Source: Methanobacteriota archaeon (lineage in GTDB: Archaea > Thermoplasmatota > Thermoplasmata > Methanomassiliicoccales > Methanomassiliicoccaceae). From it: a stretch of 37,289 nt of DNA. Below, in pieces: positions 18,088 to 25,272 of the stretch (position 1 is the stretch's first letter; each line of letters starts with the position of its first letter). The stretch covers positions 1 to 37,289 of the forward strand of contig JAAYTA010000035.1 in assembly GCA_012518185.1 (NCBI GenBank), in the 5' to 3' direction. The notes under the pieces are model-generated. The model was not told where the DNA came from, did not search any database, and saw only the letters and a list, made by a program, of their open reading frames with translations. The translations under genes were made by a program, and so were the position numbers.

Positions 18088-18200
18088 CCCACCTTAGCTC
18101 AGTCTGGCTAGAGCGGCTGACTGTAGTGGGTTACCGGTCATTCCGGTTCTCAGCCGCCGATATCAGCAGGCCCCCGGTTCAAATCCGGGAGGTGGGACCA
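18088..18200 (+). tRNA. tRNA-Tyr (GTA) with a 35-nt intron
   Basis: The acceptor CCCACCT (18088-18094) pairs fully with AGGTGGG (18190-18196), then A73 and an encoded CCA (18198-18200). The D stem is GCTC/GAGC, the anticodon stem GCTGA (18116-18120)/TCAGC (18163-18167), the variable loop AGGCC, and the T arm CCCGG-TTCAAAT-CCGGG (18173-18189). The mature anticodon loop CTGTAGA has anticodon GTA at 18123-18125. The C1-G72 pair is the archaeal tyrosine identity element. The intron at 18127-18161 interrupts positions 37/38, the usual archaeal site, and contains the hairpin ACCGG-TCATT-CCGGT. The exact splice sites could shift slightly because a textbook bulge-helix-bulge is not obvious. Confidence 0.93.
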
Positions 18201-19714: not shown

Positions 19715-20506
19715 ATGAGTGATATTACATTTCTAGGGACAGGAGGTGGTCGCTATGCTACTATATACCAAATGCGAGCCACCGGCGGAATATATATCAA
19801 AGATCTAGGGCGCTTACATCTTGATCCCGGTCCATCAGCTCTTTACGGTATGAAGGCATTATCTATTGATCCCGCTCTTACAGATTGCATATTAGTATCA
19901 CATTGCCACCCTGATCATTATGCCGATGCAGAGATGTTGGTGGAGGGCATGACACGAGGAGGTTATCGTCGAAATGGTAAGTTGATAAGTACATGCTCAG
20001 TTCTGAGAGGAAATGACAAGTTTTCACAAGCCATCTCTAATTATCACCAATCATTACCTGAGGAAGTTATCAGCGTAATCCCAGGAGATAAACTGAATGC
20101 ATCTGGAATGACAATAAAAGTTACACCTACCATACATTCTGATCCAGACGGTGTGGGATTTAGATTCGAAACTAGATCAGGATCAATATCTTATGTAAGC
20201 GATAGTGAATTCGATGAGTCTCTAGTTCATTCACACAGGGATGCTAGAGTGCTCATTATCAACTTGACATGTAGTACTCAAACTAAGATACCAAGGCATA
20301 TGCATACTGAGGATGCTGCCAGACTCATAGCTGATATAGATCCAGAAGTTGCAGTTCTAACGCATTTTGGAGTTGGAGTGCTTGAGGAAGGAGTAGAAAA
20401 ACAGGTACGAATTATAGAGAATGAATCAAAAGTTCATACAATAGCAGCTAATGATTTCATGACCATAAGTGTCGATGAAGATATTACTTTACAGCGCGCT
20501 GAATAG
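19715..20506 (+). CDS. metallo-beta-lactamase-fold hydrolase
   Basis: 263 residues. The zinc motif HCHPDH ('VSHCHPDHYADAE') lies near residues 62-69, with later His/Asp ligands in 'TPTIHSDPDGVGF', 'SYVSDSEF' and 'VAVLTHFG'. The size and sequence fit the RNase Z/PhnP-like branch without extra domains, and related genes are common in methanogens. Substrate unknown. It is about 80 bases upstream of the GTPase-RamA operon on the same strand, but the GTPase gene has its own TATA box, so the functional link is only positional. It ends with TAG. Confidence 0.78.
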   Translation: MSDITFLGTGGGRYATIYQMRATGGIYIKDLGRLHLDPGPSALYGMKALSIDPALTDCILVSHCHPDHYADAEMLVEGMTRGGYRRNGKLISTCSVLRGNDKFSQAISNYHQSLPEEVISVIPGDKLNASGMTIKVTPTIHSDPDGVGFRFETRSGSISYVSDSEFDESLVHSHRDARVLIINLTCSTQTKIPRHMHTEDAARLIADIDPEVAVLTHFGVGVLEEGVEKQVRIIENESKVHTIAANDFMTISVDEDITLQRAE

Positions 20507-20564: not shown

Positions 20565-20586
20565 TTCCCGATGTCTCAAAAGATTG

Positions 20587-21183
20587 ATGATAGTATGTCA
20601 GTTGGCTGGTTTCCTAGGAAGTGGTAAGACTACTTTGTTAATCCGCCTAGGCACCTTCCTTGGCAATGCTGGAAGAAGAGTTGCCATAATTGTTAATGAA
20701 ATTGGGGAGATCGGAGTAGATGGAGCAGTGATTGAATCAGATGGAATGAAAAGTATTGAGTTGACTGAGGGGTGCATATGTTGTACACTATCAGGAAGTC
20801 TCCAAAATACACTTAGGCAGATTGCCAGAGAGTTTGCTCCCGATATTATTATGATAGAGCCGACTGGACTCGCCCTCCCTACTAAGATCAAACAGATTGT
20901 GCGTACGTCGATGATTGGAGAGGATCGGACATTTACTATCTGTCTTATCGATGCTTTTCGTGCGAGAAAACTCTTTGATGAAGCTGGTACATTTTTAACC
21001 CGACAGATGGAGGGATCAGATATAATTGTGGTCAATAAGGTAGATCTAGTATCTCATGATGACAAGGAATATGTAAAGAATCTTGTTAGGTACATTTCTC
21101 CATCCACACCCTTAGTATTCATTTCTGCACGTGATGGACAAGGAATCGATGAAGTGGTTAGTCTATTGGAGGAAGCTCTGTGA
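20587..21183 (+). CDS. G3E-family (CobW/HypB-like, COG0523) GTPase without C-terminal domain
   Basis: 198 residues. Walker A is GFLGSGKTT (8-16), the metal-binding GCICC motif of the COG0523 branch lies at 62-66, 'EPTG' (91-94) is the switch/Walker B region and NKVD (150-153) the guanine-specificity motif. G3E GTPases are metallochaperones or gatekeepers for metal and cobalamin enzymes (CobW, HypB, UreG, MeaB). COG0523 proteins normally carry a further CobW_C domain; here the protein ends after the G domain. It is the first gene of a tight operon with an unknown protein (GTGA overlap) and RamA, so a role in loading or activating corrinoid proteins is a reasonable inference. The ATG at 20587 is preferred over the TTG at 20584. 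Confidence 0.88.
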   Translation: MIVCQLAGFLGSGKTTLLIRLGTFLGNAGRRVAIIVNEIGEIGVDGAVIESDGMKSIELTEGCICCTLSGSLQNTLRQIAREFAPDIIMIEPTGLALPTKIKQIVRTSMIGEDRTFTICLIDAFRARKLFDEAGTFLTRQMEGSDIIVVNKVDLVSHDDKEYVKNLVRYISPSTPLVFISARDGQGIDEVVSLLEEAL

Positions 21184-21578
21184 ATGACGATACTAAGGAA
21201 GAAGCGCATGCTGGTTCCTTTGGATTGAGACTCGCATTCAAGTCAACAGGTATTGAACGTAAAGAGCTCAATAATCTGATGACTGGAACTATTCTTTCAT
21301 TGGGAAAAGATATTGATGATTATGGGAAAACTTTAATTGGACATATAAAGGCCTTCATTTCAGTACCAGGCGGATCTTTGCGAATAAATATGGTTGATTT
21401 GAAGATTGGTCCAGAGACAGACGATCGTTTACCCGAGGGGAATATATCTGAGGGAGAAATTAGACTCATGGTTGCTGCAATTGGCATAAGCGATAAGGAA
21501 TTGAAGAGATTGTCTCAAAAAAGCTTGGAACCCATGAGCCGCATGTTAAGATTAGAAGTTCAAACACATGAGCACTGA
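21180..21578 (+). CDS. unknown 132-residue protein between the GTPase and RamA
   Basis: I do not recognise the family. It starts with GTG overlapping the GTPase stop and ends 9 bases before the RamA start, so it is firmly part of the operon. Soluble, acidic, no cysteine, no membrane segment. It has an alternating pattern compatible with alpha/beta folding: 'SFGLRLAFKSTGI', a helix with 'LNNLMTGTILSLGKDI', strands 'LIGHIKAFISVPGGSLRINMVDL', then two helices 'SEGEIRLMVAAIGI' and 'ELKRLSQKSLEPM'. It might supply what the short GTPase lacks, or bridge it to RamA. Confidence 0.75.
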   Translation: MNDDTKEEAHAGSFGLRLAFKSTGIERKELNNLMTGTILSLGKDIDDYGKTLIGHIKAFISVPGGSLRINMVDLKIGPETDDRLPEGNISEGEIRLMVAAIGISDKELKRLSQKSLEPMSRMLRLEVQTHEH

Positions 21579-21587
21579 TGTGGTACA

Positions 21588-23222
21588 ATGTATGGGATTG
21601 CAATAGATGTGGGAACGAGTGGCATGAGGATGCATGCGGTTGATCTTAATAATAAGCAGATAATCTCAACTGCTATCACTGTCCGCCATCCGGTTCCAGG
21701 AGCAAATGTAATGGACCATCTCACCTTTTGCATTGAAGTTGAGCAAGATCTAGCAAATAGGCTCTTGATAGATACTGCAAATAAGCTTACTAAATTATTA
21801 GATATTGATACATCAAAAGTAGAGAGAGTAGCAGTATGTGGGAACCCCATACAGTTATCTATATTCCAGAATATTGAAACTCGTGATCTAGCTTTTGCGG
21901 GTGAGACGGCACGTAGAGTGAGAGGTGTTGAAGTACAGAAAAGGGATGCTAGAGTCATAGATGCTATTGACTTAGGTCTAAATCTTCCTGAAAAGTGTCA
22001 ATTGTACGTGCCACCTGCCATTAAACATGAGATAGGGGCAGATGCACTGGCCATGATGTATAAGACGGGCCTATTAGATATGAAAGAGAATGCATTAGTC
22101 ACTGATTATGGCACAAATGCTGAAATGGCTCTTAAAGTAGGTGATAATATAATCACTGGCTCCGCTTCCGCAGGTCCAGCGATTGAGGGGCAGCATATTA
22201 AATCAGGAATGCTTGCATCTCCGGGCGCTATAAGTGACATCAATGGAAAGGATGAGTGGAGATGCACTGTACTTAATGATGATATTTTACCAATGCCTGG
22301 TGACACTGTTAGTCCTGATACTGGGACAATCATAGATGAGGGAGATATGCATGGTCGAGCATTAGGTATCACAGGCACAGGAGTTATCGCAGCTATAGCT
22401 GAAGGTTTGGACTCTGGACTTATTAAGATGCCTAGAGTTACTACATTCGATAAGAAACTTCATCTCCAAGATGGTGTCGTTCTTGAAGAGCATGATGTAG
22501 TAGAAGCAGCCAAGACATTCGGTGCAATGAGAGCTGGACATTTCACATTATTAGAGCATGCTGGATTAATGTTTGAAGAACTCGATATAATGTATATGAG
22601 TGGGGCATCCGGTACTTACGTGGATGCTCTGAAAGCTCGACGAGTGGGATTATTGCCCCCTACTTGCGATCAGATATATCAATTCGGTAACACCTCATTG
22701 GCGATGGCGCTAGATCTAATAAGGGATCCAGAATTACTGGATGAATTGCAAGTACTAGCTCAGAATATTAGAGCAAGTCATGTTATGTTTGCCTCGGATG
22801 AAGTCTTCGAGAAAGTGTTTATTCAAGAGCTAGCCTTTTGGACCGAGGGCATGCCTATGGAGGCATATAATATGATGTTGGAAGTCTCAGACCTGCAGCC
22901 TTTGCCACCTATTACTAAAGAGGCAAAAGTAACGCGAACTGTCATGAGAGATATACCAGATCTAGGTTATAAAGGTCTTAAAGTCCTTAGAGATATTGGA
23001 TTATATATCAGAGGAAGTTTCGAAGGATGCACTGGATGTGAAAAATGCGTCCAAGAATGTCCTGAAAATGCAATTAGGATCAGGCAGGGAGGAGTTCATG
23101 GCTTTGAATTAGAAGTCGCATCAGATCTGTGTAGCGGCACTGCCTGCATGCGCTGCCAGAGAGCTTGTCCACAAAAATGTTTCAAATTTCATGAGCTACA
23201 AAAGGGATTATTGAAAAGTTAA
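21588..23222 (+). CDS. ramA: methylamine methyltransferase corrinoid protein reductive activase (RamA-type)
   Basis: 544 residues, the length of Methanosarcina RamA (about 540). The body is an ASKHA-like ATPase of the RACo/RamA family ('IAIDVGTSGMRM' at the start, 'TDYGTNAEMAL' near 170, 'GITGTGVIAA' near 262, 'YMSGASGTYVDA' near 335). The C-terminus holds two [4Fe-4S] motifs: C481-C484-C487-C491-P and C515-C520-C523-C527-P. RamA uses ATP and low-potential electrons to return oxidised Co(II) corrinoid of methylamine methyltransferase systems to Co(I). Bacterial RACo proteins differ by having the iron-sulfur domain at the N-terminus. No methyltransferase or corrinoid protein gene lies in the window, so the partner must be elsewhere. 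Confidence 0.92.
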   Translation: MYGIAIDVGTSGMRMHAVDLNNKQIISTAITVRHPVPGANVMDHLTFCIEVEQDLANRLLIDTANKLTKLLDIDTSKVERVAVCGNPIQLSIFQNIETRDLAFAGETARRVRGVEVQKRDARVIDAIDLGLNLPEKCQLYVPPAIKHEIGADALAMMYKTGLLDMKENALVTDYGTNAEMALKVGDNIITGSASAGPAIEGQHIKSGMLASPGAISDINGKDEWRCTVLNDDILPMPGDTVSPDTGTIIDEGDMHGRALGITGTGVIAAIAEGLDSGLIKMPRVTTFDKKLHLQDGVVLEEHDVVEAAKTFGAMRAGHFTLLEHAGLMFEELDIMYMSGASGTYVDALKARRVGLLPPTCDQIYQFGNTSLAMALDLIRDPELLDELQVLAQNIRASHVMFASDEVFEKVFIQELAFWTEGMPMEAYNMMLEVSDLQPLPPITKEAKVTRTVMRDIPDLGYKGLKVLRDIGLYIRGSFEGCTGCEKCVQECPENAIRIRQGGVHGFELEVASDLCSGTACMRCQRACPQKCFKFHELQKGLLKS

Positions 23223-23413: not shown

Positions 23414-23421
23414 TTTATAAT
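23414..23421 (+). promoter_or_regulatory. TATA box directing transcription into the structured element
   Basis: TTTATAAT is centred near 23417, so transcription should begin near 23443-23446, exactly where the GTCCAGGGA arm starts. Confidence 0.5.
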
Positions 23422-23445
23422 TTGCGATTGCTGACTTATTTTGGT

Positions 23446-23512
23446 GTCCAGGGAGAGTGGCTCTACTTTCCTCCTGAGAGTTTTTCGAATCCCCACCACA
23501 CCTTCCCTGGAC
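23446..23512 (+). ncRNA. candidate structured RNA or structured 5' leader of the CCA-enzyme gene
   Basis: Perfect 9-bp arms GTCCAGGGA (23446-23454) and TCCCTGGAC (23504-23512) enclose 49 bases with further pairing: GTGG (23457-23460) with CCAC (23493-23496), and CTCT (23461-23464) with AGAG (23477-23480). By my count 37 of 67 bases are G or C, against roughly 30% G+C in the flanks. The TATA box fits a transcript that begins at the stem. It has tRNA-like touches (length, acceptor-like stem, a TTCGAAT stretch, ACTTT-CCTCCTG-AGAGT as a 5-bp stem with 7-base loop) but no T stem can be formed, so it is not a tRNA. It may be a small RNA or the start of the cca mRNA leader; strand is assigned from the TATA box. 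Confidence 0.45.
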
Positions 23513-23581
23513 GCCCACTGTATCATGCCTATAGATCACTCTAATGGAAAGTGTTATCGGCTGATTGCCATATGCTTGATT

Positions 23582-24907
23582 ATGGATATAGAGGAAGAGG
23601 TATTGAGGAAGATCAGTCCAAGCATAGAGCAAAGAGAATATGTTAATAGCGCAGTCAGAGATATCATAAGTGCGGTTCGTGAGGAATTTAAGAAAACATC
23701 GCTCAATCTCGATGTTATGTTAGTGGGCTCTGTGGCAAAGGACACATACATTGGAAGTCCTGACCTCGATGTATTCATATTATTTCCTACTACAGTAGGA
23801 AGGAGAGAATTGCAAGACATTGGTCTCCATATTGGAAGGAGTATTCTGTCAGATGGCAGGGAGCATTATGCTGAACATCCTTACGTTCGTGGGACATGGC
23901 GGAATCTGGACGTTGACCTTGTTCCTTGCTATGCTGTTAGAGATGTTTCGAAAATTCAAACATCCGTAGATCGCACTCCTTTCCACACAAAATACATTAA
24001 TTCGCATCTAAAGAATGGGCAGCATGAGCAGGTCCGCCTGTTAAAACAATTTATGAAAGGTATTGGTATATATGGTGCTGAGGCCAGCATCCAGGGGTTC
24101 TCTGGCTATCTTGTAGAACTCTTAATTCTAAAATACGGCGGAATGAGGAACGTATTAGAGGCATCAGCTACTTGGAAAAAAGGGGAGACTATATCATTAG
24201 GAGAAAGGGGCAGGCATTTTGAAGATCCTTTCATATTCTATGATCCAGTCGATAAAGATCGTAATGTCTCCTCTGCTCTATCATTGAACAATTTTGCATT
24301 ATTCATATACGCTGCTAGAGAATATCTTGCAAACCCCTCATTGAGATTCTTCTTCCCTAATGAGCGAAGATCATTTGAACTTTCAGATATCAGAAATATG
24401 TTAGATGAGCGCGGAACCGAGCTACTAGTAGTTCAGATAGATCGTCCGGATTTGATAGATGATGATTTATTTCCTCAGGCGAGGCGGACTTTGAAGGGAT
24501 TGACAGATCTATTAGAAGATGCAGGCTTCGCTATATATGATAAAATATTTTATATATCTAATAATATATATTTAGTAGTCGAATTAGAGTATACAACTCT
24601 ACCTAATTCAATTCGACATTATGGTCCACCTGCTTGGATTGATAATGCACAATCATTTCTCGACAAGTGGAGTAACAAAGGACTAAGTGAGCCATTCCTA
24701 GAAGATGGTCGATGGTCGGTAATGATCAAGCGAGACTTTTCTGAAGCTAGCATATTAGTTAGGGAGCGTTTCCAACAAACTTCATTAGGAAGCGCTTTCC
24801 GTAACCTAAAGGGGCTTGTAATTACGAGTGGGAAGAGAGCCCTTATAGAGGAGAACCGAGCAGCTATATCGGCCCTCTTAGACAAACGAAAGAATTGGGA
24901 AATATGA
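23582..24907 (+). CDS. cca: CCA tRNA nucleotidyltransferase, archaeal class I
   Basis: 441 residues from the ATG at 23582, the normal size for archaeal CCA enzymes. The nucleotidyltransferase motif is GS at 49-50 with 'SPDLDVFILFP', placing the two metal-binding aspartates at 61 and 63. 'YVRGTWRNLDVDLVPCY' follows, with a third acidic site, then the tRNA-binding C-terminal domains. It adds or repairs CCA at tRNA 3' ends, although tRNA-Tyr here already encodes CCA. A longer frame from 23441 only reads through the structured leader. The stop is 2 bases from the convergent membrane-protein gene. Confidence 0.93.
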   Translation: MDIEEEVLRKISPSIEQREYVNSAVRDIISAVREEFKKTSLNLDVMLVGSVAKDTYIGSPDLDVFILFPTTVGRRELQDIGLHIGRSILSDGREHYAEHPYVRGTWRNLDVDLVPCYAVRDVSKIQTSVDRTPFHTKYINSHLKNGQHEQVRLLKQFMKGIGIYGAEASIQGFSGYLVELLILKYGGMRNVLEASATWKKGETISLGERGRHFEDPFIFYDPVDKDRNVSSALSLNNFALFIYAAREYLANPSLRFFFPNERRSFELSDIRNMLDERGTELLVVQIDRPDLIDDDLFPQARRTLKGLTDLLEDAGFAIYDKIFYISNNIYLVVELEYTTLPNSIRHYGPPAWIDNAQSFLDKWSNKGLSEPFLEDGRWSVMIKRDFSEASILVRERFQQTSLGSAFRNLKGLVITSGKRALIEENRAAISALLDKRKNWEI

Positions 24908-24909
24908 AT

Positions 24910-25272
24910 TCATGCAAAGAAGGGCTTATTCATTAGCATGATCCATACGCCAAGAGATAAGAAGATAAATATGGCAATGTTGCCTACAAGTGCTTTATTA
25001 TCTACATCTGATTCTTTTATTCCAAGAAGTGGATATATCTTTTTCAATGAGGCGGCAACAGCAAACAATATAATAACGCCCATTGCCCTAAGATCTCCGA
25101 GTATTGTCCCGATACCAAAGACCAATATACCGAATAGAATGGCAATACCGGCTGTAACTATCAAAGATTTGGTGCTTCTAAGGTCCTTCATGAGGAATTC
25201 TACCTCATCAAATTCAGGAGGCACCCACTCATAAGTTTCCACCTTCTTTCCTTTCCTTCGCTTCTTGGCCAT
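24910..25272 (-). CDS. small three-helix membrane protein
   Basis: 120 residues, family not recognised by name. A very basic start (MAKKRRKGKK) and an acidic amphipathic stretch to about residue 35 precede three likely membrane segments: about 37-60 ('LIVTAGIAILFGILVFGIG'), 62-80 ('MGVIILFAVAAS') and 97-115 ('IAIFIFLSLGVWIMLM'). The basic start suggests the N-terminus is cytoplasmic. It is convergent with cca and divergent from radA. No function can be inferred. Confidence 0.7.
   Translation of the reverse strand: MAKKRRKGKKVETYEWVPPEFDEVEFLMKDLRSTKSLIVTAGIAILFGILVFGIGTILGDLRAMGVIILFAVAASLKKIYPLLGIKESDVDNKALVGNIAIFIFLSLGVWIMLMNKPFFA

What the first reader, a model, noticed from the sequence alone, without database searches (positions are those of the whole stretch)
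23414..23581. Undescribed structured RNA or leader in front of the CCA-adding enzyme
A TATA box (23414-23421) would start transcription at the first base of a perfect 9-bp stem (23446-23454 with 23504-23512) that encloses further complementary segments. The 67-base element is about 55% G+C inside DNA of about 30%. In AT-rich archaea, GC-rich islands of this sort are often RNA genes. The position, 70 bases before cca, and partial tRNA likeness (acceptor-like stem, TTCGAAT, one 5-bp/7-base arm, G-CCC-A after the stem) raise the idea of a tRNA-mimic leader by which the enzyme regulates itself. That last step is speculation; an H/ACA-type or other small RNA on either strand is also possible.
Basis: partly seen in the sequence, partly recalled or inferred. 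Interest (0 to 1): 0.72.

Follow-up and report, generated by a model that had tools for sequence, protein, structure and literature searches.

The report
Conserved small RNA beside archaeal cca
The sequence before the CCA-adding enzyme gene is a real, previously uncatalogued small RNA: a long variable stem carrying an almost unchanging C-rich loop, kept in the same two chromosomal places (next to cca and next to hisS) across a group of archaea, probably as a stand-alone regulatory RNA rather than a tRNA mimic.

Summary
A GC-rich hairpin (23443-23515, + strand) with an upstream TATA box lies before cca (ATG 23582). Relatives show a conserved RNA family absent from Rfam 15: 62 of 400 genomes of the class match the covariance model. 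Its stem covaries strongly (15 of 16 pairs changed on both sides; 182 compensatory cells against 56 in shuffles) while the loop is nearly invariant (UCCUCCU, 99-100% per column; then CCCC). Of 85 loci, 54 lie upstream of cca on the same strand. Another 28, a paralogue also present in the window's genome, lie between rnhA and hisS, facing the 3' end of hisS. Only three weak hits fit neither place.

The tRNA-mimic or cca-leader reading is not supported: tRNA models fail, cca has its own promoter-like box near -30 and no Shine-Dalgarno sequence, loop-cca pairing is at chance, and the paralogue leads no gene.

Best explanation: an independently transcribed small RNA displaying C-rich single-stranded seeds, including the 16S anti-Shine-Dalgarno core, to bind G-rich mRNA sites (or, as rival, a protein). 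The family is secure (about 0.93); the mechanism is inferred (about 0.35). Linkage to cca and hisS is unexplained. No expression data exist here.

The parts
23414..23421 (+). TATA box (TTTATAAT) of the small RNA gene
23443..23515 (+). Small RNA, stem to stem; predicted start at or next to 23443
   Evidence: Fold; covariance model hit 23442-23518, E = 1e-15
23443..23455 (+). P1 stem, 5' strand
   Evidence: Fold; covariation in 16 and 72 sequences
23503..23515 (+). P1 stem, 3' strand
23467..23475 (+). Loop motif 1, UUUCCUCCU (contains the 16S anti-SD core CCUCCU)
   Evidence: UCCUCCU 0.99-1.00 per column in 72 copies; 16S 3' ends GGATCACCTCCT in eight relatives
23487..23497 (+). Loop motif 2, GAAUCCCCACC
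   Evidence: CCCC 0.99-1.00 and ACC 0.88-0.89 per column in 72 copies
23551..23558 (+). Promoter-like box of cca itself (GTGTTATC), about 31 nt before the start codon
   Evidence: Box of the type A[TG][TG]ATTAT clusters at -35 to -30 of cca starts in 50 loci
23582..24907 (+). cca, archaeal CCA tRNA nucleotidyltransferase: the conserved downstream neighbour
   Evidence: TIGR03671, 441 bits over cut-off 281; Pfam PF09249 and PF21133

Best explanation
The element is a stand-alone small RNA gene of a new family found in part of the Thermoplasmatota. A TATA promoter starts a short RNA (the modelled region is 65-90 nt) whose ends pair in a long stem; the stem holds a 35-45 nt loop with two nearly invariant C-rich single-stranded segments, UCCUCCU and AUCCCCACC. 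SHOWN by comparison: the covarying stem, the invariant loop, its own promoter, and two fixed genomic homes (before cca; between rnhA and hisS). INFERRED: the loop works in trans by short base pairing with G-rich sequences such as GGAGG and GGUG at ribosome binding sites, copying the anti-Shine-Dalgarno core of 16S rRNA, and so represses or remodels a set of mRNAs. The neighbourhood of cca and hisS may reflect coordination with tRNA metabolism; that is a guess. The confidence given is for the mechanism; for 'real, stand-alone structured RNA family' it is about 0.93.
For: P1: 15 of 16 pairs with two-sided changes, 182 compensatory cells against 56.5 in shuffles, collapse when slid by one base (independently on a plain MAFFT alignment). 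Loop motifs invariant while the stem drifts (mean column identity 0.71). TATA box at a fixed distance; T-runs of four or more downstream in 43% against 9% at random. Paralogue beside hisS leads no gene, so the RNA itself must carry the function. CCUCCU is identical to the 16S 3' end. M. mazei sRNA154 and sRNA41 act by masking ribosome binding sites (PMC5867862).
Against: No expression data. Extended complements of the loop are not enriched in 15 genomes: the UCCUCCU-side pattern gave fewer matches than its reversed control, and TGGTGGGGATT matches are largely the RNA genes themselves. SD-like sites precede only 24% of first-ATG starts against 13% of random positions, so the number of SD targets may be small. 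Invariance of the whole loop exceeds what short seeds need. The link to cca is not explained. The window's own copy has a weak TATA score and no downstream T-run.
Confidence: 0.35

Rival explanations
1. RNP scaffold or decoy: the C-rich loop is the binding site of a protein (KH-type poly-C binder, Sm-like protein, a ribosome-maturation factor that reads the 16S 3' end, or the CCA enzyme itself), and the RNA sequesters or guides that protein.
For: The loop sequence is invariant across families and orders while no long complementary target exists; conserved unpaired C-rich segments on a rigid stem fit a protein site; strict adjacency to cca.
Against: No direct evidence for any protein; the CCUCCU identity with the 16S tail would then be coincidence or 16S mimicry.
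Confidence: 0.33
2. Cis-acting leader or dicistronic element that controls cca (including the first reader's tRNA-mimic autoregulation).
For: In all 54 cca-linked loci, in several families and orders, the RNA lies on the same strand just upstream of cca.
Against: cca has its own promoter-like box between RNA and ORF (30 of 50 starts clustered against a shuffled maximum of 17) and few SD-like sites; RNA-cca pairing at chance; cca copy lost in G008, G010 and G012 while the hisS copy stays; no tRNA match; T-runs follow many copies; the hisS paralogue leads nothing.
Confidence: 0.18
3. Guide RNA (H/ACA or C/D type) or an RNA that pairs with rRNA.
For: Small stem-loop RNA in archaea with conserved unpaired segments.
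Against: No conserved 3' ACA, no upper stem, no C/D boxes; no convincing rRNA match: 23S complementarity no better than shuffled loops, 16S matches short and G-U-rich.
Confidence: 0.05

Closest known systems
Methanosarcina mazei sRNA154 and sRNA41 (intergenic sRNAs masking ribosome binding sites; reviewed in PMC5867862)
   Same: Archaeal intergenic small RNA; predicted single-stranded anti-RBS segments exposed by a stem-loop structure.
   Different: Other class of archaea; no homology shown or testable here; single long stem with one large loop; fixed synteny with cca and hisS; targets unknown.
Bacterial C-rich-loop sRNAs that pair with SD sites (for example RsaE/RoxS, RepG; from memory, a lead only)
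   Same: C-rich unpaired seeds able to mask GGAGG.
   Different: Different domain of life, structure and context; no homology.
tRNA / tRNA-like structures
   Same: Short T-arm-like string TTCGAATCCCC in the window copy.
   Different: No cloverleaf, no model hit, no conserved CCA-like tail; the string is not conserved.
H/ACA and C/D guide RNAs
   Same: Small stable archaeal RNA genes.
   Different: No ACA, C or D boxes, no upper stem, no credible rRNA target.

Membership tests
tRNA | Cloverleaf recognised by ARAGORN or the Rfam tRNA model | tested here: not met
   No hit at the locus with either; no hit at relatives
tRNA mimic for the CCA enzyme | Conserved acceptor-like end with CCA-type tail and T-loop | tested here: not met
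   3' flank and TTCGAAT not conserved in 72 copies
Cis-regulatory leader of cca | Lies in the 5' UTR of cca, with no separate cca promoter | tested here: inconclusive
   Always upstream on the same strand, but cca has its own promoter-like box and the paralogue leads no gene; transcripts not measured
Stand-alone structured ncRNA gene | Covarying secondary structure | tested here: met
Stand-alone structured ncRNA gene | Own promoter | tested here: met
   Box at -28 to -32 in 69 of 82 copies; 52 of 82 above the 99th percentile of random positions; predicted, not mapped
Stand-alone structured ncRNA gene | Detected transcript of discrete size | not testable with these tools
   No RNA data
RBS-masking archaeal sRNA (sRNA154/sRNA41 type) | Unpaired anti-SD segment | tested here: met
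   UCCUCCU in the loop of nearly all copies; same core as the 16S 3' end
RBS-masking archaeal sRNA (sRNA154/sRNA41 type) | Identified mRNA targets with pairing at the RBS | tested here: inconclusive
   No extended complement enriched; short-seed targets cannot be resolved here
H/ACA guide RNA | 3' ACA box and upper stem above a pocket | tested here: not met
Any Rfam 15 family | Covariance-model match | tested here: not met
   Window, paralogues and nine diverse loci: none

The most novel reading that the evidence does not exclude
A new class of archaeal RNA whose loop copies the anti-Shine-Dalgarno end of 16S rRNA and binds a partner of the translation or tRNA-maturation machinery (possibly the CCA enzyme), acting as a general RNA component that is neither a guide RNA nor a tRNA in part of the Thermoplasmatota; duplication beside hisS in one order gave a second version.
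Probability: 0.15. Interest if true: 0.88.

Novelty: new variant of a known kind. Interest (0 to 1): 0.62.

Why it matters
Few archaeal small RNAs outside guide RNAs and tRNAs have known targets, and the examples in the review read here come mainly from Methanosarcina, haloarchaea and Sulfolobus (PMC5867862). This is a deeply conserved family with a covariance model, two fixed syntenic homes and an invariant loop, in a group that includes Methanomassiliicoccus. It gives a directly testable RNA linked to tRNA-end formation (cca) and a tRNA synthetase (hisS), and a case where an anti-SD sequence is kept in organisms that seem to use Shine-Dalgarno sites sparingly.

Tried and rejected
tRNA or intron-containing tRNA: no match. 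Known Rfam family: none. Second hairpin enclosing CCUCC: longest helix 4.4 against 4.1 bp in shuffles, and a GCUCA/UAAGC helix shows no covariation; such hairpins appear only in single clades. rRNA guide or rRNA binding: 16S and 23S complementarity short or at chance. Cis pairing with the cca start: score 15.6 against 15.5 in control windows. Extended mRNA or RNA targets: patterns not enriched. Conserved CCA-like 3' tail: absent. Coding sequence: lengths vary in all phases. Hits away from cca or hisS (L091, L097, L160): weak scores (27-31 bits), treated as false positives; L160 differs by eye. Literature searches found no paper describing this RNA, but the library is open-access only.

Full report
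Observation. The stem is in fact 13 bp (23443-23455 with 23503-23515) plus 4 bp inside, folding at -31.8 kcal/mol, z = -4.0. GC is 0.55 inside against 0.30 in the upstream intergenic DNA. In one genome this would not be compelling: five perfect 9-bp inverted repeats of similar spacing occur in the 37-kb window, and the TATA score is only at the 94th percentile of random positions.

Comparative evidence. A DNA search in the family found the element upstream of cca in relatives and a second, paralogous copy elsewhere. An alignment of 16 copies gave 12 of 16 stem pairs with changes on both sides, against 6.9 +/- 1.5 in shuffles, with collapse when slid by one base. A covariance model matched 46 of 147 genomes of the order, best E = 1e-19, usually one or two copies per genome. 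A broader model matched 62 of 400 genomes of the class. In 72 copies P1 has 15 of 16 pairs with two-sided changes and 182 compensatory cells against 56.5 in shuffles (that alignment was fitted to the model, so its counts lean towards it, but one search used a plain MAFFT alignment). A pattern scan of one genome for each of 84,980 species found 35 stretches, all in records titled Methanomassiliicoccus or Methanomassiliicoccales, Thermoplasmata or Thermoplasmatota, Sysuiplasma, DTU008 ('Methanomicrobia archaeon'), or unspecific Euryarchaeota.

Anatomy. The stem sequence drifts (mean column identity 0.71) while the loop is almost fixed: UCCUCCU and CCCC at 0.99-1.00 per column. The consensus is roughly GGUGGCUCAACUYUCCUCCUAAG...AAUCCCCACCACACCGG. 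The loop has no general second hairpin. Lengths fall equally in the three phases, so it is not a reading frame. T-runs of four or more follow 43% of copies within 40 nt, against 9% at random; the window's own copy has none.

Two fixed homes. Of 85 loci, 54 have cca immediately downstream on the same strand and 28 have hisS downstream on the opposite strand, convergent, with rnhA upstream; the three others are weak hits. The window's genome has both: the copy described here and G000:C6:3214-3297 (L066) beside hisS. In three relatives (G008, G010, G012) no copy is seen at cca while the hisS copy stays.

Is it a cca leader? cca starts in 50 loci carry a promoter-like A[TG][TG]ATTAT box clustered at -35 to -30 (30 of 50, shuffled maximum 17), and SD-like 4-mers are rarer than at random positions (5 of 50; random 23%). 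This suggests leaderless cca mRNA from its own promoter. Loop pairing with the cca start is at chance. The hisS paralogue leads no gene. Co-transcription at the cca locus is not excluded, and the strict adjacency remains unexplained.

tRNA likeness. No tRNA model matches, the T-arm-like string is not conserved, and there is no conserved CCA-like tail.

Mechanism. The loop carries CCUCCU, identical to the 3' end of 16S rRNA in eight relatives (GGAUCACCUCCU). Short pairing with G-rich ribosome binding sites is the simplest mechanism and has archaeal precedents, sRNA154 and sRNA41 (PMC5867862). Against it: no extended complement is enriched, and SD-like sites precede only 24% of first-ATG starts against 13% of random positions. 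Protein binding by the C-rich loop is the main rival, and sequence alone does not separate the two. rRNA complementarity shows no convincing match.

Known and unknown. No Rfam 15 family matches the window, the paralogues or nine diverse loci, and the literature searches found no description. It works most like the RBS-masking sRNAs of M. mazei, but membership in any described family is not shown.

Limits. No expression data; 5' and 3' ends are predicted. Searches of more than 40 genomes used strict filters, so presence is a lower bound, especially in family f5. The copies were found with models that include the loop, which favours copies with a conserved loop; the perfect synteny, which the models do not use, argues that they are true homologues. 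The cca start codons were assigned by script.

Noticed in passing
window 18088-18197 (+): A tRNA gene of 110 nt found by the Rfam tRNA model (54.7 bits) but missed by ARAGORN; the length suggests an intron or a long variable arm.
   Followed up: no
window 19715-20506 (+): Metallo-beta-lactamase-fold protein with weak ribonuclease Z similarity (54 bits, far below the RNase Z cut-off of 293). A homologue lies upstream of the RNA in 29 of 54 cca-linked loci, so MBL protein, RNA and cca may form an old neighbourhood of tRNA 3'-end genes.
   Followed up: partly
window 21588-23222 (+): RamA-type corrinoid reductive activase (TIGR04270, 728 bits), preceded by a CobW-like GTPase (20584-21183) and a 132-aa protein without any family match (21180-21578); they sit between the MBL gene and the RNA in this genome.
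   Followed up: no
L028-L032, L042, L045, L067-L069 (hisS-linked copies of the window's family): These paralogues carry an additional CCUCC in the loop (UUUUCCUCCGAAUCCCC), a third C-rich seed that the cca-linked copies lack.
   Followed up: no
L080, L086 (family f6, genus g30): Diverged copies upstream of cca that lost the CCUCC motif but keep the stem and GAAUCCCC; they would test which loop motif matters.
   Followed up: no
window 24910-25272 (-): 120-aa membrane-type protein convergent with cca; only a sub-threshold DUF6524 match. A similar protein lies beside cca in relatives (L009, L012).
   Followed up: no
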